From Oscillospiraceae bacterium (GTDB taxonomy: Bacteria; Bacillota; Clostridia; Oscillospirales; Oscillospiraceae): a DNA stretch of 64,000 nt. Location: NCBI GenBank assembly GCA_017397835.1, contig JAFQHV010000018.1, positions 19,682 through 83,681 of the forward strand, written 5' to 3'. The notes under the pieces were generated by a model. That model ran no database searches and was not told the DNA's origin. It saw nothing but the letters and a program-made list of their open reading frames with translations. Position numbers and translations under genes: made by a program. Below, piece by piece: positions 12,242 to 63,542 of the stretch (position 1 is the stretch's first letter; each line of letters starts with the position of its first letter).

Positions 12242-13900
12242 TCAGGCCTTTTCCAGAGCCAGAGTGCGGGTGGTCACGTCGCAGACCTCGGCAGGGCCAA
12301 AGTACTGGATGGCGCCGGGGTAGACGTAGCAGGTCTCCTCGGCCCACTGGGCGCGATGCTCGGCGAAGAAGCGGAAGGGGGCACCGTCCAGCTCCACCAA
12401 AGCCTTGCGGATAACGGGCTTATCCTTGCCGTTGCGGCGCTCGATGTTCATCATCTTGGTGATGGGCATACCGCCGGCCACCCACTCCTCAGCGGGCTTG
12501 GACAGGTTGGACACCTTGGACAGATAGCCGTTATAGCCGTACTGGATCAGCATGCAGGCGTTGTAGCCCAGGCTGTAGCAGTAGTCGGCGTCGAAGTTGG
12601 AGGGGACGGCGCAGCGGCCCTCGTATCCCAGGAAGTGGTGGATGGGGGAGAATTTGCCGGTGTAGGTGCCGGCGGCCTTGCGGGCGGCCAGATTGGTCTT
12701 GACCATCTCGGAGAACAGCTTTTCGGACTCGATCAGGGACACCTGCACGTTGCCGTGGGGGTCGCGCTCCAGGAACAACTGCTGCTGGATGCTCTCGGGC
12801 ACGATGGCGAAGACGGCCATAGCCTCCTTGGACAGGCCGGCCTCGATGAAGGCGTACTTGTCGGCCCAGGAGGGCAGGGCGTTGAACTTGGCGGTGTTCT
12901 CACCGGCCAGCAGCTCGTTGATCTCGGCGATCAGCATGGAGAACTCGGGAACGAACTCCACGATACCCTCGGGGATGATGGCCACGCCGAAGTTCCAACC
13001 CTTGGCGGCGCGGTTGGCCACGGAGTCGGCGATATAGTCGGTGATCTCGGCCAGAGACATCTTCTTCTCGGCCACTTCCTCACCAATCAGGCAGATATTG
13101 GGCTGGGTCTGCAGGGCGGTCTCCTAAGCCACGTGAGAGGCGGAGCGGCCCATGACCTTGACAAAGTGCCAGTACTTCTTGGCGGAGTTGGCATCGCGCT
13201 CAATGTTGCCCACGATCTCGGCGTAGGTCTTGGTGGCGGTGTCGAAGCCGAAGGAGCACTCGATGTCCTCGTTCTTCAGGTCGCCGTCGATGGTCTTGGG
13301 GCAGCCGATGACCTGCACGCCGGTGTTGTGGGCGGCGAAGTACTCGGCCAGTACGGCGGCGTTGGTGTTGGAGTCGTCGCCGCCGATGATGACGATGGCG
13401 TTGATACCGTGCTTCTTGCACACGTCGGCCACGATGGCGAACTGCTCCTCGGTCTCCAGCTTGGTGCGGCCGGAGCCGATGATGTCAAAGCCGCCGGTGT
13501 TGCGGAACTGGTCGATATAGGCATCGTCAAAGATGATGTAGTCATCCTCGATCAGGCCGCTGGGGCCGCCCTTAAAGCCGTACAGCACGTTGTCGGGGTT
13601 GGTGGCCTTCAGACCGTCGTACAGGCCGCACAGCACGTTGTGGCCACCGGGAGCCTGACCGCCGGACAGGATGACGCCCACGACCTGCTTCTTGGCCTGG
13701 GCAGTGTTCTGACCCTTCTGGAAGGTGATCTCGTTCTTGCCGTAGGTGTTGGGGAACAGGGCGGCGATCTTCTCCTGATCGGCCACGCTTTGGGTGGCGC
13801 CGCCGTTCTTTACGCAAATCTCGGAAATGCCGTTGCGCAGGATGCCGGGCAGCTTGGGGGAGTACTGATATCTTGCCATCTGCAGGGGGGAAATCTTCAT
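12242..13900 (-). CDS. pfp: PPi-dependent phosphofructokinase (long form), interrupted by one in-frame TAG
   Basis: Read through, this is a 552-residue diphosphate:fructose-6-phosphate 1-phosphotransferase of the long clade. Motifs in order: [14 protein letters not shown] (substrate/PPi loop), [25 protein letters not shown] and KVMGRSASH (about 250), then [10 protein letters not shown] and the C-terminal [16 protein letters not shown] single TAG at 13124-13126 splits it after SASHVA. The same frame then continues with [14 protein letters not shown] and another 290 or so clean codons, with no frameshift. Family members have leucine there (SHIALECALQ), so TTG to TAG is one substitution. It could be a nonsense mutation, an assembly error or amber decoding. 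Start 13900 has AAGGAG upstream. A GTG near 13075 is a poor restart site. Confidence 0.85.
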
Positions 13901-13990
13901 GTTAAAAACACTCCTTACAGTTGTTTTGACAAATGGAAGTATGCGGAAATTGTCCTGTTTTATTTCAAATATTGGCCGCATACAAGTGGC

Positions 13991-14019
13991 ATTATAATCC
14001 TTTTTCATTCAAAGGTAAA
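13991..14019 (-). promoter_or_regulatory. Promoter of pfp
   Basis: On the minus strand TTTACC (14014-14019), a 17-base spacer and a perfect TATAAT (13991-13996) lie about 90 bases upstream of the ATG at 13900. Confidence 0.55.
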
Positions 14020-14089
14020 TAGGAAATGTGATAATTTCAGGCTCTCATGTTAACTTTGTCGAAACAGGCAAGAGAATGGCGAAAAAGCA

Positions 14090-14118
14090 TTGAAATTATC
14101 TGCAAAACGATGTATAAT
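14090..14118 (+). promoter_or_regulatory. Promoter of the GNAT-VIT operon
   Basis: TTGAAA (14090-14095), a 17-base spacer and TATAAT (14113-14118) give a leader of about 45 bases before the ATG at 14169. Confidence 0.7.
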
Positions 14119-14168
14119 TCACACATTATTAACATTTGCAAAACAGCATTATAAAGTGGGTGGAGATG

Positions 14169-15341
14169 ATGACAGATCAAACCTGTGTGCAGGCCGCAAG
14201 CGCCGCAGGCACGATTGTAATTCAGGAAGTAACGACCAAAGAGATGCTGCGCCGTTTCGTGGACTTTCCCAACGTCCTGTACCGGGACGTGGAGCAGTTT
14301 GTCCCCGCGTTTTACGGTGACGATCTTGAGGACTGGAACCGGGATAAAAACCCCGCCTTCCAGTACTGTGAGGCTAAGAATTTTATTGCCCTGCGTGACG
14401 GGGAAATGGTGGGTCGCATCGGCGCTATCTTGAGCCACAAGGCAAATAAGACCTGGGAGACGAAGCGTATGCGCTTTTCTCAGGTGGACTTTATCGACGA
14501 TGCGGAGGTTTCCGCCGCGCTGTTTGGCGCGGTGGAGCGCTGGGCAAAAGAGAAAGGGTGCGATCAGGTCCACGGTCCCCTTGGTTTCTGCGACATGGAC
14601 CGGGAGGGTATGCTGGTTGAAGGCTTTGATCGGAACAGTATGTTCATCACCTATTACAATCATTCCTATTACAACGACCATCTGGCCGCGCTGGGATATG
14701 AAAAGGACACCGACTGGGTGGAGAACCTGATCGAGCTGCCCGCAGTTGACAGCCAGGCCGGGATTCGGATCCAAAAGCTTGCACAGCGGGTGCTGAAAAG
14801 CGGCGCCTATCACAAGGCACCCATTACGAAAAAAAGCCAAATTACCGCCAAACACATTGAGCAGGTGTTCCATTTGGTGAACAAGGCCTACGCGCCTTTG
14901 TACGGCGTGGTGGAGCTGAACGAGGACCAGATCAAAAAGTATGCCAAAAAATTCCTGCCCCTGATCAGTCCCGACCTTCTGTGTCTGCTGATGGACGAAA
15001 AGGAGGAACTGGTCGCCTTCGGCGTGTGCGCGCCTTCCATGGCAAAGGCACTCAAACGCAGCCGGGGCCGCCTGTTCCCCTTTGGCTGGATCGGGGTTTT
15101 GAAGGCGCTGAAGAAAAATGATACGCTGGACCTGCTGCTGATCGCCGTTGACCCGCAGCTGCAGGGCAAAGGCCTGAATGCCGTGGTCATGGACCATATT
15201 CTGCAGGGGGCCAACAAGCTGGGCGTGAAAAAGGTGGAGACCGGCCCCACCCTTGAGACCAACATCAAGGTGCAGAGCCAGTGGAAGTTCTTTGAGCATG
15301 AACAGCACAAGCGGCGCCGCTGCTACATCAAAAATCTGTAA
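14169..15341 (+). CDS. GNAT-fold N-acetyltransferase-like protein
   Basis: The 390-residue protein resembles the large GNAT-superfamily proteins common in Clostridia. The second half contains the acetyl-CoA pyrophosphate-binding pattern DPQLQGKGLNAVVMDHIL (about 335-352; the Q/RxxGxG/A motif) preceded by the hydrophobic strand LDLLLIAV. The substrate is unknown. The N-terminal half (MLRRFVDFPNVLYRDVEQFVP) is characteristic of this family. ATGs at 14166 and 14169 compete. GGTGGAG abuts the first, so 14169 is slightly preferred. The ferritin/VIT gene follows after 15 bases, so a shared transcript is likely. Confidence 0.75.
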   Translation: MTDQTCVQAASAAGTIVIQEVTTKEMLRRFVDFPNVLYRDVEQFVPAFYGDDLEDWNRDKNPAFQYCEAKNFIALRDGEMVGRIGAILSHKANKTWETKRMRFSQVDFIDDAEVSAALFGAVERWAKEKGCDQVHGPLGFCDMDREGMLVEGFDRNSMFITYYNHSYYNDHLAALGYEKDTDWVENLIELPAVDSQAGIRIQKLAQRVLKSGAYHKAPITKKSQITAKHIEQVFHLVNKAYAPLYGVVELNEDQIKKYAKKFLPLISPDLLCLLMDEKEELVAFGVCAPSMAKALKRSRGRLFPFGWIGVLKALKKNDTLDLLLIAVDPQLQGKGLNAVVMDHILQGANKLGVKKVETGPTLETNIKVQSQWKFFEHEQHKRRRCYIKNL

Positions 15342-15356
15342 TTTCGGGAGGTTATT

Positions 15357-16232
15357 ATGAATCAGCACGTTTCCGAAACGGCACTGGCTGTCATCAAAAA
15401 GATGCAGCAAAACGAGAGCAATGAAAGTGTTATTTATGAAAAGATTGCCGGGTTTGTCAAGGATGAGAAGAACAAGCAGACCCTGCTGCGCCTTGCCGAG
15501 GAAGAGGCTGCCCACTGCCAGGTGTGGGAGGGGTACACCGGAATTAAAATGAAGCCCCGGCGCGGCAAGGTGTTTTGGTATACCCTGCTGGCCCGTGTGC
15601 TTGGCTTCACCTTTGCGGTGAAGCTGATGGAGCGGGGAGAGGGCAACGCCCAGTCCGAGTACGAGATGCTGGCAGAGGAAGTGGAGGAGAGTGTCCGCAT
15701 CCGTCAGCAGGAGGAGGAGCACGAGCAGGCTCTGCTTGCCATGCTGGACGAGGAGAGCCTGCAGTATGTGGGCAGCATGGTGCTGGGTCTGAACGATGCG
15801 CTGGTGGAGCTGACGGGCAGTTTGGCGGGCTTCGCGTTTGCCCTGCAGAACACTCGGCTGATCGCGCTGTCCGGCCTGATCGTGGGCATTTCCGCCACTT
15901 TCTCTATGGCCTCCAGCGAGTTCTTGTCCGCCCGCAGCGAGGGACGTACCGACGCGCTGAAGTCCTGCTCCTATACCGGTGTGGCCTATCTGATCACGGT
16001 TATTCTGCTGGTGCTGCCCTATCTGCTGCTGACAAGCTATATGACCGCCCTGGCCAGCATGCTGCTGATCGTGGTGGCAATCATTGCCGGCTTTACCTAT
16101 TACACCTCGGTGGCGCAGGATCAGCCGTTTGGCTCCCGGTTTGGCGAGATGGCGCTGATCAGTATCAGCGTGGCCGTGCTGTCCTTTGTGGTGGGCATTC
16201 TGGCCAAAAAGTTCCTTGGTGTTGATCTGTAA
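15357..16232 (+). CDS. Ferritin-like/VIT1 (CCC1) family metal transporter
   Basis: Of 291 residues, the first 130 or so are a soluble helical, glutamate-rich ferritin/rubrerythrin-like domain (LAEEEAAHCQVWE near 42-54, plus the EEVEESVRIRQQEEEHEQ helix). The rest is a VIT1/CCC1 membrane domain with about five segments and the family pattern GLNDALVELTGSLAG (about 144-158). VIT1/CCC1 proteins move Fe2+ or Mn2+ out of the cytoplasm, and the fused domain probably binds metal before export. SD GGGAGG precedes the ATG. It is the second gene of a probable GNAT-VIT operon and is closed by a strong terminator. Confidence 0.9.
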   Translation: MNQHVSETALAVIKKMQQNESNESVIYEKIAGFVKDEKNKQTLLRLAEEEAAHCQVWEGYTGIKMKPRRGKVFWYTLLARVLGFTFAVKLMERGEGNAQSEYEMLAEEVEESVRIRQQEEEHEQALLAMLDEESLQYVGSMVLGLNDALVELTGSLAGFAFALQNTRLIALSGLIVGISATFSMASSEFLSARSEGRTDALKSCSYTGVAYLITVILLVLPYLLLTSYMTALASMLLIVVAIIAGFTYYTSVAQDQPFGSRFGEMALISISVAVLSFVVGILAKKFLGVDL

Positions 16233-16236
16233 CCGA

Positions 16237-16270
16237 AAAACACGGCTGCCGACAAGGCAGCCGTGTTTTA
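16237..16270 (+). terminator. Terminator after the VIT1-family gene
   Basis: AAAACACGGCTGCC pairs with GGCAGCCGTGTTTT around a five-base loop, four bases after the stop. Confidence 0.9.
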
Positions 16271-16318
16271 TATTTGTATTTAGCACAATAAATGCAATCC
16301 GGGGGGCAATAGGTGTAA

Positions 16319-16347
16319 TTGAATTTACGCATTTTGCATGATATACT
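16319..16347 (+). promoter_or_regulatory. Promoter of the tandem DUF4838 genes
   Basis: TTGAAT (16319-16324), a 17-base spacer and TATACT (16342-16347) give a leader of roughly 60 bases that carries the mini-ORF at 16413. Confidence 0.65.
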
Positions 16348-16412
16348 GACATCAACAGGCACAATATTTGTAAACTTACATCACCAACCTGAAACGAAAA
16401 GGGGGAGGGTGC

Positions 16413-16442
16413 ATGTCTGTGCCCATGCACCAACAAAGATGA
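16413..16442 (+). other. Nine-codon leader mini-ORF coupled to the first DUF4838 gene
   Basis: ATG at 16413 follows the strongest SD in the region (GGGGGAGGG) and encodes MSVPMHQQR before TGA at 16440. That stop overlaps the ATG of the downstream gene (ATGA at 16439-16442). The main gene has no SD of its own at the right spacing, so it would be translated by coupling. That it is translated is inferred from sequence layout alone. Confidence 0.5.
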
Positions 16443-18334
16443 AACTTTACAAGAATATGCCCACAGCTATCGTGCTGCCCGAACATCCCATGCCCACCGA
16501 GCAGTTTGCTGCGGAGGAACTGGCCAAGTATTTGACACAGAGCCTCGCTATCAGCGCCGACATTACCGACAAGGTGATGGAAGGGGTCTACTCCTTCGTC
16601 ATCGGCTGTCCTGTTCGCAATGCTGCCGCCACCGCGTTCATTGGCGCGGAGGAGTTTGCCGCCGCTTGCCCCGGTCCCGAGGGCATTTATATCAGTATCG
16701 GGGAAACCGGCACCCTGATCGCCGGCAGCGAGGATGCCGATAACATCAACCGCGGCACCCTGTACGGCGTGTACGAGTACTGCGAGCGGTATCTGAACTG
16801 CTGCTTCGGTGCCTATATTAAAGAGGGTGTCCCGGGCGGTGAAGTGGTTCCCGCCTACGACGAGCTGACCCTGCCCAACGAGGTCTATTGCAAGGCCAAG
16901 TGTGACCTGACTGCCCGAGGCGCCATCCTGCAGTACAACAACTGGGTGTGGGACGCCGAGCATGAGCTGAACGCCGCTTTCTTTGACTATCTGGTCAAGA
17001 ACCGCTATAACTCCATCAGCACCTGGGTGGGCATCTACGAGCAGTGGCAGGATATGGGCCTGCTGCCCGAGCTGGAAAAGCGCGGCCTGACCGTTGGTGC
17101 CGGTCACCACCACGCCTTCACCACCTGGCTGCCCCCCTACGGAAACAAGCATTTCTCCACCCGCTACGTGGAGGAGTATCCCGAGTACTTCCGCCTGCAG
17201 GAGGACGGCACCCGCTGGAAGCCCGACGAGGGCGACATCTTCGGCGGTCAAATCGCCTGGTGCTGCCACAATATGGAGATGATCGACACGCTGGCCGACA
17301 ACATCAGCATCTGGCTGGACAAGAACCCCATGGTCCGTTCCTTTGGCTTCCCGCCCAACGACGGCAAGGCCCCCGTGTGCTGCTGTGACGGCTGTAAGGA
17401 CCACACCAAGATGGAGAACTATCTGTTCTTCGCCAACAACCTCATCGAGCGGGTGCAGAAGCGGCATCCTCTGGTCCTTATGGGCATCGGCGCTTACAGC
17501 GACCTGCACGCCTGTCCCGAGGATATGGACGTGCACCCGGGCTTGAGTGTGGACCAGTCGGTCTGGGGCGGCAACGGCCTGCGCTACGTGGGCAACCCCG
17601 ACGGCAGCGGCTTCATCGGCACCGAGTTTGACGAGAATATGGAGGCCTTCCGCAAGAAGTGCGAGCGGATCACCTGCTCCGAGTACCACATGGGCATTTA
17701 CGGCAACCGCCACCGGGTCATGCCCTGCGCCGACGAGATGCAGACCATGCGCAAGTATTTCATCCAAAAGGGCTACAGCGGCGGCAGCACCCAGATCGAG
17801 TGTTTCAACGTGTGGAACAACCTGCTGAACTTCTACTGCTACGCCCGGGTGGGCTACGATGTGGAGCAGTCCTTGGATATGCAGATCAAGGCTATGTGCC
17901 GCCTGTTTGGCAAGGGTGCGCCCTACGTGGAGGAGATCCTCCGAATTTACGAGGACACTGTCAACGGCGAGGAGCGCATCAATAAGGCCGCCATCTGGTT
18001 CCGTGAGCACGTGGATGCGGAGAAGGTCTATGACCTGTACGAGAAGGCTTTGGCTGCCACCGGAGACGACAAGGTAGCCGCCAACAACGTGCGCATGATG
18101 CGTATGGCCTTCCGCTACTCCATGATCGACCCGGAGCTGTCTGTGCCTGGCGATCCCATTAGCGATGAGATCATCTACATGGCTCGCAACTTCAACAGCT
18201 ACATGACCAAGACCGGTTACGGCATCACCATTGCCGTGAACTATTATCTGAAGGACAACAAGTTCAATATTCGCATGCCTGAGGGCGAGGTGCCCGATCT
18301 GTCCAAGACGGACAAGTGGTATCAGTTTGCGTAA
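16439..18334 (+). CDS. DUF4838 family cytoplasmic glycosidase-like protein, copy 1
   Basis: The 631-residue protein belongs to the DUF4838 family. An N-terminal alpha-glucuronidase/hexosaminidase-type domain (MPTEQFAAEELAKYL near 16-30; RGTLYGVYEYCERYL near 105) precedes a TIM-barrel-like core. The core has conserved NNWVWDAEHELNAAF, GHHHAFTTWLPPYG and a Cys cluster VCCCDGCKDHTKMENY. No signal peptide is present, so it is cytoplasmic. A hydrolytic role on a glycoside is plausible, but no activity can be named from sequence. It begins at the ATG overlapping a leader mini-ORF; a GTG at 16409 is in frame but sits on the SD. It is followed 30 bases later by a close paralogue. Confidence 0.8.
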   Translation: MKLYKNMPTAIVLPEHPMPTEQFAAEELAKYLTQSLAISADITDKVMEGVYSFVIGCPVRNAAATAFIGAEEFAAACPGPEGIYISIGETGTLIAGSEDADNINRGTLYGVYEYCERYLNCCFGAYIKEGVPGGEVVPAYDELTLPNEVYCKAKCDLTARGAILQYNNWVWDAEHELNAAFFDYLVKNRYNSISTWVGIYEQWQDMGLLPELEKRGLTVGAGHHHAFTTWLPPYGNKHFSTRYVEEYPEYFRLQEDGTRWKPDEGDIFGGQIAWCCHNMEMIDTLADNISIWLDKNPMVRSFGFPPNDGKAPVCCCDGCKDHTKMENYLFFANNLIERVQKRHPLVLMGIGAYSDLHACPEDMDVHPGLSVDQSVWGGNGLRYVGNPDGSGFIGTEFDENMEAFRKKCERITCSEYHMGIYGNRHRVMPCADEMQTMRKYFIQKGYSGGSTQIECFNVWNNLLNFYCYARVGYDVEQSLDMQIKAMCRLFGKGAPYVEEILRIYEDTVNGEERINKAAIWFREHVDAEKVYDLYEKALAATGDDKVAANNVRMMRMAFRYSMIDPELSVPGDPISDEIIYMARNFNSYMTKTGYGITIAVNYYLKDNKFNIRMPEGEVPDLSKTDKWYQFA

Positions 18335-18364
18335 ACGGTGTCCCAAAGAGGAGATGTATTAACT

Positions 18365-20263
18365 ATGAAACTGAATAAGAGTTTGCCTGTGGTAATTGTA
18401 CTGCCCGCCAACCCCATGCCTACCGAACAGTTTGCCGCCGAGGAGTTGGCTAAGTACCTCAAAAAGTGCATCGGCATTGATGCCCCCATCGCCGACAAGG
18501 CGGGGGAGGGGGACTATGCGTTCGTGATTGGTGGTCCCGCCCGCAATGCCGCCGCCAGCGCCTTCATCAGCGCAGAGGAATTTGCCGTAGCTTGCCCCGG
18601 CCCCGAGGGTATCTACATCCACATTGGGGAGAACGGCACCCTGATCACCGGCAGCGACGATGGGGATAACCGCAACCGCGGTGCGCTGTATGCGGTTTAT
18701 GAGTACTGCGAGCGGTATCTCGATTGCTGCTTCGGTGCCTACACCAAGCCCGGTACCCTGGGCGGTGAGATCGTCCCCGCCTATGACGAGCTGACCCTGC
18801 CCAATGAGATTATCTGCAAGGCCAAGGCTGACCTGCCTTACCGTGCGGCTGTGGTGCAGTACAACAACTGGGTTTGGGACGCCGAGCACGGCCTGAACCA
18901 TTCCTTCTTCGACTTTTTGGCCAAGAACCGCTACAACACCATCCTAACCTGGACCGGCGTGTACGAGCAGTGGAAGGAACTGGGCGAGCTGCCTGAGCTG
19001 ACCAAGCGCGGCTTCTCGTTGAATGTGGGTCACCACCACGCGGTGGATACCTGGCTGCCCCCTTACGGCAACAAAGATATCCCCATTCACTACGCCGACG
19101 AGCACCCCGAGTACTACCGCCTGAACGAGGACGGAAGCCGCTGGCACCCCGATGAGTCCGCCAAGTACACCGGCCAGATTGTCTGGTGCTGCAGCAACGA
19201 CGAGATGATCGAAGAGGTGGCCAAAAACGTCAACCGCTGGGTCGAGAAGAACCCGCTGGTGGACACCATTGGCTTCTGGCCCAACGACTTTAAGGACGAG
19301 CAGTGCTGCTGTGAGAAGTGTGCCGGCAAGACCAAGATGGAGAACTATCTGTCCTTCGGCAACAAGCTGGCCCGCCGGGTGCGTGCGGCCCATCCCGGCG
19401 TGAAGGTGGATATCATTTCCTACTCCGATATGTGGGAGTGCCCCGAGAACATGGAGGTGGACGACGCCCTGCAGCTGAACCACTCCGTGTGGGCCACCCG
19501 CGTGCTGCGCAAGATCGGCAACCCCGACGGCAGTGGCATCATCGATACCGTCTACTCCGAGAATATTCTGAGATTCCGCAAGCTGATGAAGCACGTGGTA
19601 TTCTACGAGTACTACATGGGCATCTACGGCAACCGCCACTACCTGATGCCCGCCGCCGATGAGATGCAGGCCATGTATAAGTACTACGTGGAAAACGGCA
19701 TCGACGGCAGCGGTACCCAGTTTGAGTGCTTCAACCTGTGGAACAACCTGCTCAGCTTCTACTGCTTTGCCCGTACCGCTTACGATACCGAGCTGTCCCT
19801 GGAGGATAATATCCGTGCCATTGGCCGTCTGTTCGGCAAGGCCGCCGATACGGTGGCGGAAATCTTCCGCATCTGGGAAGATACCCTCAACGGCGAAGAG
19901 GTCATCAACAAGGCGGCTATCTTCTTCAAGGAGCACGTGGACGCGGAGAAGATTTACAGCCTGTTTGACAAAGCCCTGGATGAGGCACAGGACGATGGAG
20001 TCGCCGCCAACAACGTGCGTCTGCTGCGTATGGCCTTCCGCTTCACCATGCTGGACGAGGACGGCCTGGACGCCACCACCGAGAAGGGCCGCGAGATGAT
20101 TTACATGTGCCGCAACTTCAACAGCTACCGCACCAAGGGCGGCTACGGCATTGCGATTCCGTTCAACTACTTCCTGTCCAAGGAAATGCATTTTGGCTTT
20201 GCCTTGCCCGATGACGAGGTGCCCGACCTGTCCAAGACCGATCGCTGGTACGCGTTTGCCTGA
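18365..20263 (+). CDS. DUF4838 family cytoplasmic glycosidase-like protein, copy 2
   Basis: This 632-residue protein is collinear with the preceding gene over its whole length. Shared blocks include MPTEQFAAEELAKYLKK, NRGALYAVYEYCERYL, VQYNNWVWDAEHGLNHSF and GHHHAVDTWLPPYGNK. The Cys motif is CCCEKCAGKTKMENY, and both end PDLSKTD(R/K)WY(A/Q)FA. The pair clearly arose by tandem duplication and is now diverged at many positions, so two related substrates or a heteromer are possible. There is no signal peptide. SD AAAGAGGAG lies 11 bases before the ATG, with a three-codon ATG-TAT-TAA in between, echoing the mini-ORF of copy 1. A terminator follows. Confidence 0.8.
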   Translation: MKLNKSLPVVIVLPANPMPTEQFAAEELAKYLKKCIGIDAPIADKAGEGDYAFVIGGPARNAAASAFISAEEFAVACPGPEGIYIHIGENGTLITGSDDGDNRNRGALYAVYEYCERYLDCCFGAYTKPGTLGGEIVPAYDELTLPNEIICKAKADLPYRAAVVQYNNWVWDAEHGLNHSFFDFLAKNRYNTILTWTGVYEQWKELGELPELTKRGFSLNVGHHHAVDTWLPPYGNKDIPIHYADEHPEYYRLNEDGSRWHPDESAKYTGQIVWCCSNDEMIEEVAKNVNRWVEKNPLVDTIGFWPNDFKDEQCCCEKCAGKTKMENYLSFGNKLARRVRAAHPGVKVDIISYSDMWECPENMEVDDALQLNHSVWATRVLRKIGNPDGSGIIDTVYSENILRFRKLMKHVVFYEYYMGIYGNRHYLMPAADEMQAMYKYYVENGIDGSGTQFECFNLWNNLLSFYCFARTAYDTELSLEDNIRAIGRLFGKAADTVAEIFRIWEDTLNGEEVINKAAIFFKEHVDAEKIYSLFDKALDEAQDDGVAANNVRLLRMAFRFTMLDEDGLDATTEKGREMIYMCRNFNSYRTKGGYGIAIPFNYFLSKEMHFGFALPDDEVPDLSKTDRWYAFA

Positions 20264-20276
20264 CCGATGCCAAAAT

Positions 20277-20429: not shown

Positions 20430-20477
20430 CGTACCGGTTAAGAAGAATGAAAGAAAAGAAAGAAAAGGAGAATACGT

Positions 20478-55261: not shown

Positions 55262-55550
55262 CGGAGTCCTCCTGCAGGCGGGGGATTACGGTTTGATAGC
55301 CGTCCTCACCGTACATCAGAGCGCGGTTGACCCGGCTGATGGTGGCGCTGGAGGCACCGGTCCGCTCCAGAATATCGCTGTAGATCAGGCCCTCGTTCAG
55401 CAGCAGAGCCACCTCCATACGCTGCTCCATGGCGCGCAGTTCGGACACAGTACAAAGGTCCTGAAAAAAGCGGCGGCACTCGTCCATGTCCTTCAGCGTG
55501 AGGATGGCCTGATATAAGATGTCGTTTGGCTCGCGGGGAGGAAGTTTCAT
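55248..55550 (-). CDS. YerC/YecD family TrpR-like regulator, second copy
   Basis: The 100-residue protein aligns with the copy at 41133-41438: LKDMDECRRFFQDLCTVSEL, RAMEQRMEVALLLNEGLIYS and recognition helix TGASSATISRVNRALM. The operator-reading helix is almost identical in both, so they may bind related sequences. It heads a run with the methyltransferase, hslO and the nitroreductase. SD AAAGGATGG precedes ATG 55550. Confidence 0.88.
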   Translation of the reverse strand: MKLPPREPNDILYQAILTLKDMDECRRFFQDLCTVSELRAMEQRMEVALLLNEGLIYSDILERTGASSATISRVNRALMYGEDGYQTVIPRLQEDSDGKL

Positions 55551-55685
55551 AACATACCATCCTTTCTTACCCATAGGCCGATATAGTACCAAATATTTTA
55601 TCAAATCAGTTTGTGAAAGTAAAGGGGGAATTACGCAAACCAAACCCGGTCCGTGCGCATAAACTGTCCCAAAGGAGGCGGTTTT

Positions 55686-56345: not shown

Positions 56346-56386
56346 GCTTGCAAATGTCCACATACCTGTAGACGGGAGGCGGTGGC

Positions 56387-57730
56387 ATGGCGTTTGTAGC
56401 TCGGCTGGCAGATTTTATGTGGTTTCCGTGGCTGCTGGGGCTGTTTTTGCTGGTGGGCGTGTACTATTCCGTCCGAACCGGGTTCTTTCAATTCTTTGGG
56501 ATACGGCACTGGTTTGGCGCGACGATGGGCGGCTTGCTGCGGGCAGGACAGCGGCAGGGGACGGGGATCACTCGATTGCAGGCACTGACCACGGCCCTTG
56601 CCTCTACCATCGGTACCGGCAGTGTGACCGGGGTAGCGACGGCTATTTGGTTCGGCGGGCCGGGAGCGGTGCTTTGGATGTGGGTCAGCGCCGCGCTTGG
56701 AATGATGACCGGCTGTGCGGAGAAGATTTTGACACTGCACTGGCGGCAGTTGGGACCGGACGGCAGCTGGCGGGGCGGACCCATGTACTACATTGCCAAA
56801 GGAATGGGGAGCCGCTTTTTGGCTGTGTGGTTCTCGGCGGCCTGTGTAGGTGGCGCACTGGCGGGAGGGGGGATGGTGCAAAGCAGCGCCATCGCCCAAA
56901 GCCTTGATCGCGCGGCAGGGGTAGATCGACTTTGGGTCGGTATCGCGGTGGCGGTGCTGGCGGGCGTGATACTGGTCGGCGGTATCGGTCGTATCGCCCG
57001 GGTCAGTCAGCTGTTGATGCCCGCTATGGCACTGTTGTTTCTTGGAAGTGCCGGGGCGGTGCTGTGGCTGTGCCGTGAACGATTGCCCGAAACCCTTTGG
57101 CTGATCGTTAAAAGCGCGTTGACACCACAGGCGACGGTGGGCGGCGTGGGAGCTGCGGCGGCAGTCCGATACGGCGTGGCGCGGGGCGTATTTACCAACG
57201 AGGCGGGGATGGGATCCACCGCCATGGCCCACGCAAATGCGGACACCAAGTGCCCCGGAGAACAGGGAATGTGGGGTATGTTCGAAGTGTTTTTCGCTAC
57301 GGTGGTAGTCTGCACCGCAACGGCGCTGGTCATCCTCTGCGCCGGGGTGTATGACCCGGCTGCGGCGGGAGCGGGCGGGGACATAGGGGTTTCTCTTGCG
57401 GCAGACTCCTTTGGCCGGGTACTGGGACCTGCGGGAGCAAGGATCGTGGAGGTCAGTGTGGCGCTGTTTGCCTTTTCCTCGGTACTTGGGTGGAGCTTTT
57501 ACGGGCAGACGGCTATGGAGTGGTTGTTTGGCGGGCGGTGGGCAAAACCGGCGTGGCTGTGTGTGTTTCTTTCGGCCTGTATTTCGGGAAGTGTGGCCCC
57601 GGCGGAACTGGTGTGGCAATTGGTGGACCTGTTCAGCGCATTGATGGCGCTGCCAAATCTGACGGCGCTGCTTTTCCTGTCGCCCCAAGGGTTAAAACTG
57701 CTTTGGGAATATCTTGACAACAAGAGATAG
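56387..57730 (+). CDS. Sodium:alanine/glycine symporter (AGCS family), second copy; ends in TAG
   Basis: The 447-residue symporter has family blocks ITRLQALTTALASTIGTGSV (about 63) and FTNEAGMGSTAMAHANAD (about 268), and about ten membrane segments. It is clearly diverged from the copy at 10778-12178. Na+-coupled uptake of a small amino acid is expected. It ends LLWEYLDNKR followed by TAG (57728-57730), the only TAG among the annotated stops. In frame, GAA-TGT-GTG-TAA follows, so reading through would add just three residues. SD is GGGAGGCGG. Confidence 0.92.
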   Translation: MAFVARLADFMWFPWLLGLFLLVGVYYSVRTGFFQFFGIRHWFGATMGGLLRAGQRQGTGITRLQALTTALASTIGTGSVTGVATAIWFGGPGAVLWMWVSAALGMMTGCAEKILTLHWRQLGPDGSWRGGPMYYIAKGMGSRFLAVWFSAACVGGALAGGGMVQSSAIAQSLDRAAGVDRLWVGIAVAVLAGVILVGGIGRIARVSQLLMPAMALLFLGSAGAVLWLCRERLPETLWLIVKSALTPQATVGGVGAAAAVRYGVARGVFTNEAGMGSTAMAHANADTKCPGEQGMWGMFEVFFATVVVCTATALVILCAGVYDPAAAGAGGDIGVSLAADSFGRVLGPAGARIVEVSVALFAFSSVLGWSFYGQTAMEWLFGGRWAKPAWLCVFLSACISGSVAPAELVWQLVDLFSALMALPNLTALLFLSPQGLKLLWEYLDNKR

Positions 57731-57781
57731 GAATGTGTGTAAAGTCAAAACACTGTTCAGAAGTTCGGGAATGAAATGTAC

Positions 57782-57810
57782 TTGCATACCATGCGCTTTT
57801 CTGTTACAAT
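57782..57810 (+). promoter_or_regulatory. Promoter of the EamA transporter
   Basis: TTGCAT (57782-57787), a 17-base spacer and TACAAT (57805-57810), upstream of the ATG at 57847. Confidence 0.55.
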
Positions 57811-57846
57811 ACCCAGCAGACCAGTGAGACGGAGCGTGTAGCAGAT

Positions 57847-58731: not shown

Positions 58732-58738
58732 CAAAACC

Positions 58739-58770
58739 AAGAGCGCGGTCTATTTGACCGCGCTCTTTTT
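58739..58770 (+). terminator. Terminator after the EamA transporter
   Basis: AAGAGCGCGGTC pairs with GACCGCGCTCTT around a five-base loop, followed by a T tract. Confidence 0.92.
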
Positions 58771-58838
58771 GCACCTGTCTGCCTTGATCTTCATAGCATG
58801 GGGAAACGGGCGGCGTTTGCCGCAAAAGGAGGCAGACT

Positions 58839-59231
58839 ATGGCACAATCGGGCACGTTGCACGTGCGGGTCTATACGTCACAGGCGGAGATACCGGTGCC
58901 GGGTGCGGCGGTCATCGTGGCCAGCCGGGGCCGGGACGGGAAATATCAGCTGATCTCCCTGCAGGAAACGGACGACAGCGGCAATATCAAACCGGTCCGG
59001 GTGGATGCGCCGCCCGCGGCGGAGAGTACCGCCCCCGAACAGATGGAGCAGCCCTTTGCGGTGGTGGACGTGTGGGTGGAGCATCCGGGCTATGAGGTCA
59101 TGTGGCTGGAACAGGTGCAGATCTTTGCCGGTCAGCAGACCGTGCAGCAGGTGGAGCTGAACCCGCTGGTGGTGGGGGAGAGCTGGACCGAACGCACCGA
59201 CGTGCGGCCCATTCCGCCCCAGGAACTGTGA
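58839..59231 (+). CDS. Small beta-sandwich protein (carboxypeptidase regulatory-like), spore-type cluster gene 1
   Basis: The 130-residue protein resembles a carboxypeptidase-regulatory/CnaB-type fold: GTLHVRVYTSQAEIPVPGAA, then VDVWVEHPGYEVMWLEQVQIFAG. No signal peptide is seen. Such proteins head clusters with SpoIID/peptidoglycan-binding proteins in spore formers. It starts 10 bases upstream of the SpoIID-like gene. SD AAAAGGAGG is strong. Confidence 0.75.
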   Translation: MAQSGTLHVRVYTSQAEIPVPGAAVIVASRGRDGKYQLISLQETDDSGNIKPVRVDAPPAAESTAPEQMEQPFAVVDVWVEHPGYEVMWLEQVQIFAGQQTVQQVELNPLVVGESWTERTDVRPIPPQEL

Positions 59232-59240
59232 GGTGGCGGC

Positions 59241-60464
59241 ATGGCAGTCGTAACACCTTATATTCCAACAACCATCACCGTCCATTTGGGTGCGCCCAAC
59301 CAAAATGCCGAGAACGTGACGGTGTCCTTTTCGGACTATATCAAGAACGTAGCCAGCAGCGAGATTTACCCCACATGGGAGCCGGCGGCCATCCGGGCCA
59401 ACGTGCTGGCCCAGATCTCTTTTGCGCTGAACCGGGTCTACACCCAGTTTTACCGCAGCCGCGGGTATGACTTCGACATTACTTCATCCACGGCCTACGA
59501 CCAAAAGTTTATCCGGGGACGCAACATTTTTCAAAGCGTATCGGACATCGTGGACGACGTGTTTGACAGTTATATCCGCCGCCGTGGGTTTGTGGAGCCG
59601 CTGGCAGCCAAGTTCTGCAACGGTACCACCGTCACCTGCGCCGGTATGTCCCAGTGGGGCAGTCAGGAGCTTGCCAAACAGGGGTATGATTCCATTGCCA
59701 TCCTGCGCAACTACTATGGTGACGATATCGAGCTGGTCACCGACGTGCCCCTGCAGCAGCCACAGGACAGCTTCCCGGGCCGCAATATGCGCCGGGGCGA
59801 CAGTGGGGAGGATGTGCTGATCGTGCAGGTGATGCTCAACCGCATCTCTCAGGATTACCCGGCTATTCCGAAAATTTGGCCCACCGCCGCGGTGTTTGAT
59901 GCCAACACCGAGCGTTCGGTGCAGAAGTTTCAGCAGATTTTCGGCCTGACCCCGGACGGCATCGTGGGCCGGGCCACGTGGTACAAGATGGTGTCCCTCT
60001 ATAACGCCATCAACCGCCTGTCGGAACTGGTCAGTAAAGGTCAGCGCTTTACAGCAGTCAACTTCCGTTACCCCGGCGTCACCGGCCCCGGAAGCACGGG
60101 CCAGTCGGTCAGTGCCCTGCAGTATATGCTCAGCGCCATCAGCGAGTTTTACGACGTCATACCCGACGTGGCGGTGGACGGCACCTACGGGCCGGCGACC
60201 CAGGATGCCGTGCGGGCCTTTCAGCGGGCGGCGGGACTTGTACAGGACGGCATCGCCGGGGAACAGACGTGGATTATGGTCTATCGGGTCTTCGCCAGTC
60301 TGGAAAACCGCTATCTGCAAAGCCAGATCCGCTTTCCGGTCACGGCGCAGGCCGCCGCCGCGGGGGAGCAGGCGGACTACGGTTTAACGAGCCGAATGCG
60401 GCAGGATCCGGGGCGGGAGCTCGGCTTTGGGCAATCGGATGAGAGGGGAGAGGCGTTGGTATGA
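59241..60464 (+). CDS. SpoIID-like protein with peptidoglycan-binding domains
   Basis: Of 407 residues, the first 180 resemble the SpoIID/LytB type (AAKFCNGTTVTCAGMSQWGS, then YDSIAILRNYYGDDIELVTD). Two PG_binding_1 domains follow (MRRGDSGEDVLIVQVMLNRI to FGLTPDGIVGRATWYKM, and a second ending GIAGEQTWIMVYRVF). No signal peptide is visible, as is common for proteins acting within the developing spore. A role in spore cortex processing is the natural reading. Its ATG follows SD GAGGTGG; its stop overlaps the next gene. Confidence 0.85.
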   Translation: MAVVTPYIPTTITVHLGAPNQNAENVTVSFSDYIKNVASSEIYPTWEPAAIRANVLAQISFALNRVYTQFYRSRGYDFDITSSTAYDQKFIRGRNIFQSVSDIVDDVFDSYIRRRGFVEPLAAKFCNGTTVTCAGMSQWGSQELAKQGYDSIAILRNYYGDDIELVTDVPLQQPQDSFPGRNMRRGDSGEDVLIVQVMLNRISQDYPAIPKIWPTAAVFDANTERSVQKFQQIFGLTPDGIVGRATWYKMVSLYNAINRLSELVSKGQRFTAVNFRYPGVTGPGSTGQSVSALQYMLSAISEFYDVIPDVAVDGTYGPATQDAVRAFQRAAGLVQDGIAGEQTWIMVYRVFASLENRYLQSQIRFPVTAQAAAAGEQADYGLTSRMRQDPGRELGFGQSDERGEALV

Positions 60465-61027
60465 GAGAGGACGTATTTTTGTTGGGCAGACCCATAGAGA
60501 GCCTGCAGACTATGCTGCAGCAGCTTTCCTACGGCCATAAGGCGCTGCCCTTTTTGGTGCCGGACGGCCGCTTTGGGGAGGAAACCCTGGAGGCGGTGAT
60601 GGTGTTCCAGCGGGAGTTCGGCCTGCCGGTGACGGGGCGGGTAGACCCGGACACCTGGGCCGAGGTGGTGCGCCGCTACGACGGTTGGATGCGGGAACGG
60701 GCCAAACCGGATCCGCTGCGAGCCTTCCCGGTGCGGCCCTTCCAACTGGAGATCGGGGACCGGGACGACGTGGCGGTGGTGGTGCAGACTCTGTTCGGCA
60801 TCCTGTCCGGCGTGGTGGACGGTATCGGGGACGGCACACGGGACGGTTGGCACAGCGGCATGTCGGTGGATAACGTGATGTGGCTGCAGAAGGTGTCCGG
60901 GCTGCCCGTCACCGGGGTGATGGATAAGGAGACGTGGAACCGGCTGGCGCGGCTGTATGACCTGCTGATCGTGCGCCGCCGGGAGCTGGAACGGGAGGCG
61001 CCCCAGACGGCGCTTGAAAAAAAGTAA
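60461..61027 (+). CDS. Peptidoglycan-binding protein, spore-type cluster gene 3
   Basis: The 188-residue protein consists mainly of two PG_binding_1 domains: residues about 15-65 ending REFGLPVTGRVDPDTWAEVV, and residues about 95-165 ending SGLPVTGVMDKETWNRLARL. There is no signal peptide. Its start overlaps the SpoIID-like stop (ATGA), so the three genes 58839-61027 are one unit. Confidence 0.85.
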   Translation: MREDVFLLGRPIESLQTMLQQLSYGHKALPFLVPDGRFGEETLEAVMVFQREFGLPVTGRVDPDTWAEVVRRYDGWMRERAKPDPLRAFPVRPFQLEIGDRDDVAVVVQTLFGILSGVVDGIGDGTRDGWHSGMSVDNVMWLQKVSGLPVTGVMDKETWNRLARLYDLLIVRRRELEREAPQTALEKK

Positions 61028-61046
61028 AATTTTCTTCAAAAAAGGC

Positions 61047-61075
61047 TTGCAAAAGGGGAAAGTGTGTGGTATCAT
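61047..61075 (+). promoter_or_regulatory. Promoter of tRNA-Pro
   Basis: TTGCAA (61047-61052), a 17-base spacer and TATCAT (61070-61075), 33 bases before the tRNA. Confidence 0.65.
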
Positions 61076-61107
61076 AACGAAGCTGTCCGGGTAAGCCGGT
61101 CGCATTT

Positions 61108-61184
61108 CCGGGTGTGGCGAAGTTTGGTATCGCGCTTGAATGGGGTTCAAGAGGCCCTGAGTTCGAATCTCAGCACTCGGACCA
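61108..61184 (+). tRNA. tRNA-Pro (anticodon GGG)
   Basis: The 77-base cloverleaf has acceptor CCGGGTG pairing with CACTCGG, anticodon stem CTTGA/TCAAG with loop ATGGGGT (anticodon GGG, G37), T loop TTCGAAT and encoded CCA. An integrase gene begins 100 bases downstream, so its 3' end is a likely attachment site. Confidence 0.96.
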
Positions 61185-61219
61185 AAACCGTTGGAATTCT
61201 ATGAATTCCAACGGTTTTT
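61185..61219 (+). terminator. Terminator after tRNA-Pro
   Basis: AAACCGTTGGAATTC pairs with GAATTCCAACGGTTT around TAT and is followed by a T tract. Confidence 0.92.
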
Positions 61220-61240
61220 CTTTGTTTTCGACCGGATTTT

Positions 61241-61286
61241 CATCACGCTTGATTTTCGCGAGATTTAGGAGGAATCAAGCGCGATG
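61241..61286. repeat. Inverted repeat spanning the integrase SD and start codon
   Basis: CATCACGCTTGATT (61241-61254) and AATCAAGCGCGATG (61273-61286) are inverted with one mismatch. The loop holds the SD GGAGG, and the right arm includes the ATG of the integrase. In RNA this hairpin could hide the start; in DNA it could be an integrase or excisionase site. Confidence 0.55.
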
Positions 61287-62222
61287 AAAAAAGGAAAGAT
61301 TTTGATGCAGATCAGCACCACCACGGCAGAAGTTTTCGAGGATTTTCTGTTGTCGCGGAAAGCAAAGGGGTTAAGCGAGAAAACACTGATCTCCTACAAG
61401 CAGCACTTTGCGGCGATCAGCAAGCATCTGTGTACGGATATTCCAATAGAGGAATTGAACAAGGGTGATCTGGAACGGATGATTGCCGCAATGCGGGACG
61501 CGGGCCTTGCCGCAAACTCCATCAAAAGCTACACGCGCACGCTGAAATCCTTTTTCTCTTGGTGCAACCGCGAGGGAATCACCCGGCTGAACATCCCGCT
61601 TTACAGAGCGGAGGAAACGATCAAGGAAACATACACCGATGAAGAATTGATCGTCCTGCTGAAAAAGCCAAATGTGAGAAAGTGCAGCTTCGCGGAATAT
61701 CGCAACTGGGTCACGATCAATTTGCTGTTGAATAATGGATGCCGCGCCGCCACCATACGCAATATCAAGACAAGGGATGTTGATCTGGAATGCCACGTGA
61801 TTTATCTGCGCCATACCAAAAACAAACGAGCGCAGACAATACCCCTTTGCGAAGCCCTCTGTGGCACGCTCAGAGAGTACATGAGGATTCGGGGCGGGGA
61901 ACTGGATGATTATCTATTCCCCAACGAAAACGGCACACAGCTGACGGAAAACGGTCTGCGGTGCAGCATTGCCAACTACAACAAAAAGCGCGGTGTCCAA
62001 AAGACAAGCATACATCTGTTCCGACACACGTTTGCGAAAAAGTATCTTGTGGACTGCGGCGGCAACGCATTTACACTTCAAAGGCTGTTGGGTCATTCCA
62101 CCTTGGACATGACAAAGCATTACTGTGCGATCTTCGATGCGGACATAGTGCGGAACTATGACAACTTTTCTCCGTTGGCACAGATAAAATCCAGTAGCCA
62201 GAAAATCAAAATGAGGCCGTGA
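61284..62222 (+). CDS. Tyrosine recombinase/integrase of a mobile element
   Basis: The 312-residue protein has an N-terminal SAM-like core-binding domain (FLLSRKAKGLSEKTLISYKQ) and a C-terminal catalytic domain. Its Arg lies in NNGCRAATIRNIK (about 154), the HxxR box in HLFRHTFAKK (about 250), and the late His/Tyr in LLGHSTLDMTKHYCAI (nucleophile Tyr about 280). All catalytic residues are visible, so it may be active. It lies 100 bases after tRNA-Pro. An ATG seven codons downstream with GGAAAG upstream is an alternative start. Confidence 0.93.
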   Translation: MKKGKILMQISTTTAEVFEDFLLSRKAKGLSEKTLISYKQHFAAISKHLCTDIPIEELNKGDLERMIAAMRDAGLAANSIKSYTRTLKSFFSWCNREGITRLNIPLYRAEETIKETYTDEELIVLLKKPNVRKCSFAEYRNWVTINLLLNNGCRAATIRNIKTRDVDLECHVIYLRHTKNKRAQTIPLCEALCGTLREYMRIRGGELDDYLFPNENGTQLTENGLRCSIANYNKKRGVQKTSIHLFRHTFAKKYLVDCGGNAFTLQRLLGHSTLDMTKHYCAIFDADIVRNYDNFSPLAQIKSSSQKIKMRP

Positions 62223-62247
62223 CGAGAACAACGGAGGGCACGAAAAA

Positions 62248-62273
62248 GAGCGGGAGGTTTGCGCCTCCCGCTC
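62248..62273. terminator. Bidirectional terminator between integrase and GIY-YIG gene
   Basis: GAGCGGGAGG pairs with CCTCCCGCTC around six bases. The minus-strand product ends TTTTTCG, fitting the end of the minus-strand gene cluster. Confidence 0.75.
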
Positions 62274-62279
62274 CGAATT

Positions 62280-62699
62280 TTATAGTATTGAGTTGAGTAT
62301 TTCCCTTGCATCAAGGGTGTTTATATCGAACTTGTGCCAGTTGTTCTCTTTTGGAATCTGCGTGTTTAGGAGCGGGCGTATTTGCCGAATATACTCCCCC
62401 TCCTTTGCACCAATCTCCGCGAGCCTGTCCGGGTATCGGCTGCTTTCGGCATAGTATAGCACATCAAAATTGATTGCGTGGCCTTTGCGCTGCGCCTCTG
62501 CCAGAATGCGGTATTTCTTTTCTGATTGTTGTTGTATGGCAACGTAGTGCTACGCCACGCGTTTGAGCATATTACTGCTTTTCCCGATATAAACAATGGT
62601 ATCGTCAATCTTGATGCAGTAGATTCCTGCGTGTTCGTACTTATCGGCATGACCTTTGCGCTTTAACCATTTATAGACATTTTCTTCGTACCGTGTCAT
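62280..62699 (-). CDS. GIY-YIG protein of the mobile element, interrupted by one in-frame TAG
   Basis: Read through, the frame has 139 codons. It opens with a start overlapping the stop of the winged-helix gene (TAATG), then residues 26-45 read GIYCIKIDDTIVYIGKSSNM, the GIY-YIG core. TAG occurs at codon 50 (62550-62552) after LKRVA. The same frame resumes with HYVAIQQQSEKKYRILAEAQ and 90 clean codons to TAA. In the fold the residue after this Arg helix is usually Glu, Gln or Lys, so GAG or CAG to TAG is one change. It is either a pseudogene with a single recent lesion or an amber-decoded gene. Nuclease activity is expected from the domain. Confidence 0.75.
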
Positions 62700-63295
62700 T
62701 AGAATACGAAATCTCCCTTTTTCGGCATAGGGGTAATTTCTTTTTTCGGATCTAACTTAGGTACGGGTATTCTGATTTCTTTCTCTTCTGGAACTTTGAT
62801 TTCCTCCGTGGTTTCTAATCCACTAATATTTGTCCGGGGGTTATCTGGTATTTCCCTATTATTTATTTCTGTATTCTCTGGCAATACAGGCTGTTCGGGT
62901 CGCTCAATGCGTATGTCGGCACTCGTACATTCTTCAAAATTCAGTCCGACAGCCGACACCGGCTTTTGAATGTTGCCGTGGCGCGGCTGTGGTACTTCAA
63001 AAAAATCAAAGCCGTTTCCACCAGTCTGGACAAGATACCCCTTGTCTACCAGTTTTTCAAATTGATCGTGATAGGTGGAGCGGGCCATCCCAACCGCCGA
63101 ACGAACGGCGGCGGGAGAAAGGGCCAGAGAATAGCCATTGGCATTGGAAGCCAGATAGAGGTATAACAGCGTGGAGTATGCGCCAAGATCACGCGCGGCA
63201 CTCATCCAGTTCTCGTTCTTGATGCCAAGAAAATCGGACTTTGCTGGTTCGCGGTGTATGGTAACCACCCGCTGATTCGGGACTGTGTACGGCAT
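62699..63295 (-). CDS. Winged-helix DNA-binding protein of the mobile element
   Basis: The 198-residue protein has a winged-helix-like region: WMSAARDLGAYSTLLYLYLA, then SPAAVRSAVGMARSTYHDQF and EKLVDKGYLVQTG (about 30-95). A charged, proline-rich tail without domains follows (PEEKEIRIPVPKLDPKKE). The wHTH type is common in plasmid or ICE replication and regulatory proteins; a replication role is possible but not shown. SD AAGGAGG precedes ATG 63295, which overlaps the stop region of the small gene upstream. Confidence 0.75.
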   Translation of the reverse strand: MPYTVPNQRVVTIHREPAKSDFLGIKNENWMSAARDLGAYSTLLYLYLASNANGYSLALSPAAVRSAVGMARSTYHDQFEKLVDKGYLVQTGGNGFDFFEVPQPRHGNIQKPVSAVGLNFEECTSADIRIERPEQPVLPENTEINNREIPDNPRTNISGLETTEEIKVPEEKEIRIPVPKLDPKKEITPMPKKGDFVF

Positions 63296-63308
63296 AGCGT
63301 GTCCCTCC

Positions 63309-63542
63309 TTATCGTCCAAAGTCATCAAGCGTGTTGCGAAGTTGGCGCAACGCTTCATCTTCCAGACGGATACTGATGCGGGACATCACATCCGCAATGA
63401 TTTCACTTTTCACCTTTTCCAGTTCGGAACGATGAATAAAATCCTGTTTCATCTGCTCGCGGGTGAAATAGTAGTTTAGGTAAGCCTAACCCTTGGCATC
63501 AAGGCCATCAACAAATTGAGAAATAAAATCGGTTTTTTTCAT
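63309..63542 (-). CDS. Small mobile-element protein interrupted by one in-frame TAG
   Basis: Too short for routine ORF calling because TAG interrupts it at codon 19 (63486-63488). Read through, the 77-residue protein begins MKKTDFISQFVDGLDAKG, then after TAG continues AYLNYYFTREQMKQDFIHRS and another 39 codons of charged helix to TAA at 63309. It has a strong SD (AAGGAGG) 10 bases before the ATG and a clear promoter at 63603-63631. The stop overlaps the SD of the next gene. The family is not recognised; it is a small, charged, helical protein. The clean frame after TAG argues that it still is, or was until recently, a full gene. Confidence 0.6.

What the first reader, a model, noticed from the sequence alone, without database searches (positions are those of the whole stretch)
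12242..63542. Possible amber (TAG) decoding in this genome
By hand count of about 57 annotated genes, stops are split between TAA and TGA, and TAG ends only one (57728-57730), where TAA follows three codons later. At the same time three clean frames contain internal TAG. Rarity as a stop plus presence inside genes is what would be expected if TAG is read as an amino acid, as in pyrrolysine users or TAG-reassigned phages and bacteria. The aligned residues do not obviously agree (Leu in pfp; probably Glu/Gln in the GIY-YIG gene), which argues against one simple code change, and GC-rich genomes also use TAG sparingly.
Basis: partly seen in the sequence, partly recalled or inferred. Interest (0 to 1): 0.85.

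Follow-up and report, generated by a model that had tools for sequence, protein, structure and literature searches.

The report
Amber codons inside integrated element genes
This gut bacterium reads the TAG codon as an ordinary stop, but a piece of foreign mobile DNA inserted in it carries genes in which TAG seems to stand for an amino acid (best fit glutamine), as in some gut phages, so those genes may be readable only when something supplies a special tRNA.

Summary
In detail: TAG rarely ends genes here (5 of 496 predicted genes in a 35% sample of the genome, two of the five being interrupted genes), and three window frames contain in-frame TAG. Genome-wide recoding does not hold: RF1 is intact, none of 45 tRNAs found has anticodon CTA, and pylS is not found. 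The TAGs have two causes. The pfp TAG is isolated: all 80 homologues kept have leucine there, so it is a nonsense mutation or sequence error. The other two (62552 and 63488, minus strand) lie in a mobile element integrated at tRNA-Pro and cut by the contig end. All 12 close chromosomal relatives of its GIY-YIG gene (this one included; 9 genomes, three families) and one on a plasmid carry 1-4 in-frame TAGs. Across 23 element gene families, in-frame stops in homologous matches were TAG 48 (36 without self-matches), TGA 0, TAA 1. TAG sites align mostly with Gln, Glu or Lys; sequence past TAG is under purifying selection; many genes of the same elements lack internal TAG. This is code-15-like recoding confined to some genes of integrated elements in standard-code hosts. 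Decoding by a phage suppressor tRNA is inferred, not shown.

The parts
61108..61184 (+). tRNA-Pro(GGG); probable integration site. Synteny with sister genome G060 stops at its 3' end (61185)
   Evidence: ARAGORN; blastn against stretches of G060 contig C24
61284..62222 (+). tyrosine integrase of the element; no internal TAG (one TAG lies 5' of the ATG)
   Evidence: Pfam PF00589 7.8e-25; PHROG integrase 1.9e-45; relatives without internal stop
62280..62699 (-). GIY-YIG endonuclease-like gene, 139 aa if TAG is read through
   Evidence: PF01541 E 3.9e-4, 21.1 bits, just under the 22.6 cut-off; phrog_1111 endonuclease 2e-10; 13 members incl. this one, all with TAG
62550..62552 (-). in-frame TAG of GIY-YIG; in 11 aligned sequences the column is Gln 5, TAG 4 (incl. 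this one), Ser 1, Glu 1
   Evidence: alignment (column 62)
62699..63295 (-). replication-initiator-like protein, 198 aa; no TAG here, one TAG in two of five family members
   Evidence: phrog_270 1e-7
63309..63542 (-). 77-codon ORF (ORF76) with in-frame TAG; three relatives beside the same initiator gene, all with TAG at differing positions (one of them found by eye)
63486..63488 (-). in-frame TAG of ORF76; aligned with Gln in G604a
13124..13126 (-). in-frame TAG in the pfp (PFK-family) gene 12242-14008; unrelated to the element; Leu in 80 of 80 homologues examined
57728..57730 (+). TAG as genuine terminator of the Na:Ala symporter gene 56387-57730; the Pfam match ends one residue before it

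Best explanation
The chromosome uses the standard code and merely ends few genes with TAG. At the right end of the window a mobile element is integrated at tRNA-Pro. It belongs to a family of integrase-bearing elements in related gut bacteria in which some genes (GIY-YIG nuclease-like, ORF76, two further gene families, sometimes the replication initiator) use TAG as a sense codon, best read as glutamine, while integrases, regulators and other genes of the same elements do not. In an ordinary host cell these TAGs should end translation. The most likely way they are read is a suppressor tRNA(CUA) brought by something else, probably a code-15 phage that switches TAG to Gln late in infection, so the genes would be made when such a phage is active in the cell. 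Shown here: TAG specificity, alignment with Gln-like residues, purifying selection past TAG, coexistence with TAG-free genes and TAG terminators. Inferred: identity Gln, the tRNA source, the timing and the benefit. The pfp TAG is a separate nonsense mutation or sequence error.
For: 12 chromosomal GIY-YIG loci in 9 genomes (8 of 400 family genomes match, one of them weakly, leaving 10 loci in 7 genomes; 9 of 394 order genomes match, six weakly, adding 2 loci) and plasmid pRGI00117 all carry in-frame TAG. In-frame stops inside tblastn matches of 23 element gene families: TAG 48, of which 12 are self-matches of the queries, TGA 0, TAA 1, the TAA in a 20%-identity match. TAG columns of the GIY-YIG alignment: Gln 22 of 91 residues, 7.3 times its share of the alignment, p 0.00015 against random columns; one column is Gln in 9 sequences and TAG in 2. 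dN/dS 0.02-0.25 over the gene and past the first TAG wherever dS could be computed (7 pairs). 11 other gene families of the same elements: 0 TAG against 305 CAA/CAG codons. TAG ends the SprT-like gene in G727 and DUF-B in G857 where homologues also end. Contexts after TAG vary (+4: C 16, A 11, G 11, T 3 of 41), which fits codon-general decoding rather than a fixed readthrough signal. Code-15 phages read TAG as Gln late in infection (PMC9523058, passages).
Against: No suppressor tRNA and no helper phage was found. The GIY-YIG, gene3, initiator and helicase queries found no relative in viral contigs, nor GIY-YIG in the phage records; TerS has only distant relatives, at 28-36% identity, in 6 of 50,697 phage records, not checked for recoding. 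Residue scoring does not single out Gln: per column Q 17.0, K 16.1, E 15.1, and weighted by TAG count K scores above Q (57.5 against 45.7). Q, K and E codons are also one-step sources of TAG by mutation. Every member having TAG is not surprising given the TAG rate (P 0.30 for 11 GIY-YIG, 0.36 for 4 ORF76), so selection for a gate is not shown. Queries were themselves read through TAG, which favours TAG. In the class-wide profile search six weak matches in other GIY-YIG-like proteins run over TAA (one of them over a TAG too); I take them as unrelated. No proteomics.
Confidence: 0.6

Rival explanations
1. The TAG genes are decaying genes: nonsense mutations in cargo no longer needed.
For: The hosts read TAG as stop. 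High-GC codon usage makes TAG the likeliest single-step nonsense codon, by my rough estimate somewhat over half of such mutations, from the codon table.
Against: TAG 48 (36 without self-matches) against TGA 0 and TAA 1; low dN/dS past TAG; TAG at the same codon in all 4 gene2 and all 3 gene3 members; 13 of 13 GIY-YIG members affected.
Confidence: 0.1
2. The genes were picked up repeatedly from code-15 phages, where they work, and are passengers in the integrated elements.
For: Code-15 phages occur in the gut (PMC9523058, passages); the element family sits at tRNA genes, as prophages often do.
Against: No relative of the GIY-YIG, gene3, initiator, WYL or TerS queries was confirmed in viral contigs and none of GIY-YIG in 50,697 phage records, though TerS has six distant phage relatives; GIY-YIG keeps its element neighbours (initiator, ORF76 or gene2) in several genomes.
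Confidence: 0.2
3. The whole host genome decodes TAG as an amino acid (pyrrolysine or a reassigned code).
For: TAG is very rare as a stop (3 of 494 after removing two interrupted genes) and present inside pfp.
Against: Intact RF1 and RF2, 0 of 45 tRNAs with CTA, PylS model 20.4 bits against 178; pfp position is Leu in 80 of 80; the scan of the sample for a stop with typical coding signal on both sides finds TAG only in pfp.
Confidence: 0.03
4. Low-level natural readthrough of TAG makes small amounts of the proteins, giving dose control without any suppressor tRNA.
For: Single TAGs in several genes; +4 base is C in 16 of 41 sites, T in 3.
Against: Members with 3-4 TAGs would be made at vanishing levels; contexts vary.
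Confidence: 0.07

Closest known systems
Code-15 (TAG to Gln) gut phages, e.g. crAss-like phages (PMC9523058, passages incl. abstract; PMC10879173, abstract and introduction; Borges et al. 2022 recalled, not held)
   Same: TAG read as Gln in part of the genes while hosts use the standard code
   Different: Here in integrase-bearing elements sitting in bacterial chromosomes and in a 7-kb plasmid, with no suppressor tRNA found and no structural genes seen among the shared genes
Phage satellites such as PICIs (recalled)
   Same: Integrase at a tRNA gene, regulators, replication initiator; the related plasmid pRGI00117 has a terminase small subunit (phrog_2538 1e-27) that itself carries TAG
   Different: No helper identified; no TerS recognised in the chromosomal elements; TAG-dependent expression would be a new kind of helper dependence
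Plasmid records pRGI00117 (HG796263.1) and pRGI00100 (HG796260.1), which I recall as part of the rat cecum metamobilome of PMC3913684 (passages seen; the text does not contain the name pRGI00117)
   Same: pRGI00117 carries the GIY-YIG homologue with TAG at the same codon as the window; both have several TAG-interrupted genes and a TAG-free Rep3-type gene
   Different: Circular, GC 34%; the paper's main text has no occurrence of stop codon or genetic code

Membership tests
Code-15 recoded element | TAG inside conserved reading frames, other stops absent | tested here: met
   TAG 48 (36 without self-matches), TGA 0, TAA 1 over 23 families in 12 stretches; only part of each element's genes carry TAG
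Code-15 recoded element | TAG specifies Gln | tested here: inconclusive
   Gln enriched 7.3-fold in TAG columns and one column otherwise all Gln; K and E score nearly as well, K better by another weighting
Code-15 recoded element | own suppressor tRNA(CTA) | tested here: not met
   none in 14 element stretches by ARAGORN or in 7 of them by Rfam gathering scores; the window copy is truncated and element borders were not mapped
Phage satellite | integrase at tRNA, no full set of structural genes | tested here: inconclusive
   tRNA next to an integrase in 7 of 12 chromosomal loci; ends of elements not mapped; no structural gene seen among shared genes
Phage satellite | mobilised by a helper phage | not testable with these tools
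   needs experiment; no helper found
Pyrrolysine user | pylS and tRNA-Pyl (CTA) | tested here: not met
   for the window's genome only
GIY-YIG nuclease | GIY-YIG domain match | tested here: met
   PF01541 27.8 bits, over the cut-off, for the plasmid homologue; 21.1 and 22.4 bits, just under 22.6, for window and G105; phrog_1111 endonuclease 2e-10 for the window; fold not tested

The most novel reading that the evidence does not exclude
The elements carry an amber-gated module: nuclease and partner genes are kept silent by in-frame TAG in normal cells and are translated only when a code-15 phage supplies its suppressor tRNA, so the phage's own code switch triggers a defence or satellite programme against it.
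Probability: 0.3. Interest if true: 0.9.

Novelty: new variant of a known kind. Interest (0 to 1): 0.72.

Why it matters
Stop-codon recoding is known from gut phages; why phages switch code and what hosts or rivals make of it is open. A family of chromosomal elements with TAG-coded genes in standard-code bacteria would show that recoding reaches beyond phages, makes such genes look broken in standard annotation, and gives a direct test of whether a phage's suppressor tRNA switches on genes of its rivals.

Tried and rejected
Rejected: pyrrolysine use and genome-wide reassignment. Rejected: one cause for all three TAGs. The first stop count (TAG 108 of 476) was an artefact of a model trained on antisense frames; I reseeded with eight window genes. 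In one search the finder called no genes in two AT-rich stretches (G038, G048); these, and G044, G058, G039 and G056 of other genera (5 TAG of 52 genes), are not in the genus count. A blind count of conserved in-frame stops in all frames (TAG 143 sites, TGA 772, TAA 114; output cut) is swamped by antisense frames and is not used; restricts it to sense-strand families that I chose by eye. The comparison 33 of 119 against 0 of 305 Gln codons (Fisher 1.6e-20) is circular, since families were sorted by having TAG, and its sequences are related; I use it only descriptively. Coding density under TAG-sense is ambiguous for the plasmids, because TAA-sense raises it about as much. The class search with the GIY-YIG profile matched 69 of 391 genomes, beyond the window's own only weakly (best 1.6e-6) and mostly in frames of about 600 aa, which I take for UvrC; six of those weak matches run over TAA. 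MT836340.1, found through the integrase (154 phage records match it), is not visibly recoded. PADLOC gave only CRISPR-associated-type matches for WYL and one weak hit for GIY-YIG. Literature searches listed, by titles and abstract starts, no paper describing such elements; only open-licence PMC papers are held.
Full report
What was checked. The window is bases 19682-83681 of contig C13 (83,681 long, so the window ends with the contig) of a 1.84-Mb, 96% complete genome in 43 contigs. The closest named pfp relatives are Oscillospiraceae MAGs, among them one from goat cecum (98% identity in the first half of pfp). In-frame TAGs exist as described: 13126-13124 in pfp, 62552-62550 in a GIY-YIG-like gene and 63488-63486 in a 77-codon ORF, all on the minus strand.

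TAG as a stop. With a codon-usage gene finder seeded by eight window genes, 645,856 bases gave 496 genes ending TAA 282, TGA 209, TAG 5. Reading the five: pfp and a Fic-like gene (my naming) continue in frame past TAG; a 132-aa GNAT-like, a 160-aa RlmH-like (names recalled) and a methylase-like gene seem truly to end there. The finder missed the symporter that also ends in TAG. Sister genomes: G060 4 of 171 and G061 4 of 111; 11 same-genus genomes 17 of 232. So low TAG use is a trait of the group that is strongest here (p 1e-6 against the genus, 0.02 against the two sisters).

No genome-wide recoding. RF1 (L002, with the usual PxT and GGQ segments; motif meaning recalled) and RF2 are intact. 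45 tRNAs were found by Rfam and the anticodons of all 45 read with ARAGORN; none is CTA, though some expected tRNAs such as Phe are missing from the assembly. The PylS model scores 20.4 bits against a cut-off of 178. In a scan for stops with typical coding signal on both sides, TAG appears only in pfp; three TAA cases look like adjacent genes.

The pfp TAG. 528 relatives were found and the best 80 kept; in 80 of these 80 the codon is leucine (CTG 41, TTG 18, CTT 8, TTA 7, CTC 6), including the sister G060. Both halves are otherwise open and the genome has a second PFK-like gene with an open frame. I take the TAG as a recent nonsense mutation or a sequence error.

The mobile element. Synteny with sister G060 stops at 61185, the 3' end of tRNA-Pro. 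Beyond it lie a tyrosine integrase, the GIY-YIG gene, an initiator-like gene and the 77-codon ORF76. GIY-YIG relatives were sought in 150 and then 400 family genomes, 394 order genomes and, by profile, 391 class genomes. Close relatives, judged by score and length: 10 loci in 7 genomes of the family (window included), 2 loci in 2 genomes of other families, and plasmid pRGI00117. All 13 carry in-frame TAG. The remaining matches (1 and 6) are weak, to frames of about 600 aa in all but one (209), and contain no stop. In the class search the other matches are weak too; six of them run over TAA.

TAG is specific. Matching 23 element gene families against 12 stretches gave in-frame stops TAG 48, TGA 0, TAA 1; 12 of the 48 are self-matches of queries that I had read through TAG, leaving 36. 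Adding two loci and re-running 18 families gave TAG 37, TAA 1. TAG-bearing: GIY-YIG 13 of 13; ORF76 3 of 3 by tblastn and a fourth seen by eye in G1018; gene2, 71 aa, 4 of 4 at the same codon; gene3, 266 aa, 3 of 3 at the same codon, the same three loci being all that a search of 400 genomes found; initiator 2 of 5. Two further small families have TAG in one member each, and three of the four plasmid families tested (TerS and two small ones, not Rep3) have it in both plasmids. Without internal TAG: integrases, HTH, WYL, three DUF-like families, a second initiator, a second recombinase and others.

What TAG encodes. In the alignment of 11 GIY-YIG sequences (made before G857 and G1018 were found), residues in TAG columns are Gln 22, Glu 19, Lys 18, Thr 9 and others, of 91. 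Column 126 is Gln in 9 and TAG in 2; column 62, the window's site, is Gln in 5 and TAG in 4. Gln is 7.3-fold enriched (p 0.00015 against random columns). BLOSUM scoring prefers Q narrowly per column and K when weighted by TAG count. With code-15 phages as precedent (PMC9523058, passages) Gln is the best reading, not a proven one.

Are the genes alive? dN/dS over seven GIY-YIG pairs is 0.02-0.25 where dS could be computed, also past the first TAG; one pair was saturated overall and two past the TAG, and several dS values exceed 1. Within the same elements TAG ends the SprT-like gene of G727 and DUF-B of G857 at the place where homologues end, so TAG is stop and sense in one element. Host genes beside the elements, outside roughly set borders, end with TAG in 4 of 108.

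Who reads TAG? No CTA tRNA in 14 element stretches, none by Rfam in 7, and a pattern search of 9 genomes gave 10 matches, nine resembling tRNA-Arg(TCT), of which the window genome's is confirmed as such, and one unclassified; the pattern's sensitivity was not tested. The host proper should therefore stop at TAG. Code-15 phages use suppressor tRNAs in standard-code hosts (PMC10879173, abstract and introduction). The simplest supply for these genes is such a phage. A terminase small subunit with TAG in pRGI00117, and its TAG-bearing homologue in pRGI00100, hint at satellites that act when a phage packages; the nuclease-like gene hints at defence. Neither is shown. The GIY-YIG, gene3, initiator, WYL, helicase and TerS queries had no confirmed relative in viral contigs; TerS has six distant relatives among phage records, which I did not examine for recoding beyond fetching part of one.

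Limits. The element in the window is cut by the contig end; element borders elsewhere were not mapped. Gene families were chosen by eye. Sequences within a family are related, so counts are not independent events. That every member has a TAG is expected from the TAG rate alone (P 0.30 and 0.36), so selection for the gate itself is not shown. No expression data exist here.

Noticed in passing
L058 (G000:C12) 648-944, minus strand: A Fic-like gene is cut by an in-frame TAG, with a typical Fic segment (recalled) continuing in frame beyond it; not compared with homologues.
   Followed up: no
L267 (HG796260.1, pRGI00100) 6008 to 118 across the record start: A 563-codon DEAD/ResIII-like helicase gene is open only if five TAGs are read through; the annotated record splits it into short genes.
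   Followed up: partly
window 16439-18334 and 18365-20263: Two neighbouring genes, the second of DUF4838 type, look like a tandem pair: each also matches the other's counterpart in sister G060 at about 70% DNA identity.
   Followed up: no
L343 10452-12360 and L345 12310-17240: Near the element relatives in G857 and G1018 lie further cargo-like genes, by eye methylase- and ATPase-like ones among them, so the family may carry defence genes.
   Followed up: no
L346 (MT836340.1), whole 11-kb record: A human-gut record filed as phage shares the integrase type, a SprT-like gene and a serine-recombinase-like match with these elements but is not visibly TAG-recoded.
   Followed up: partly
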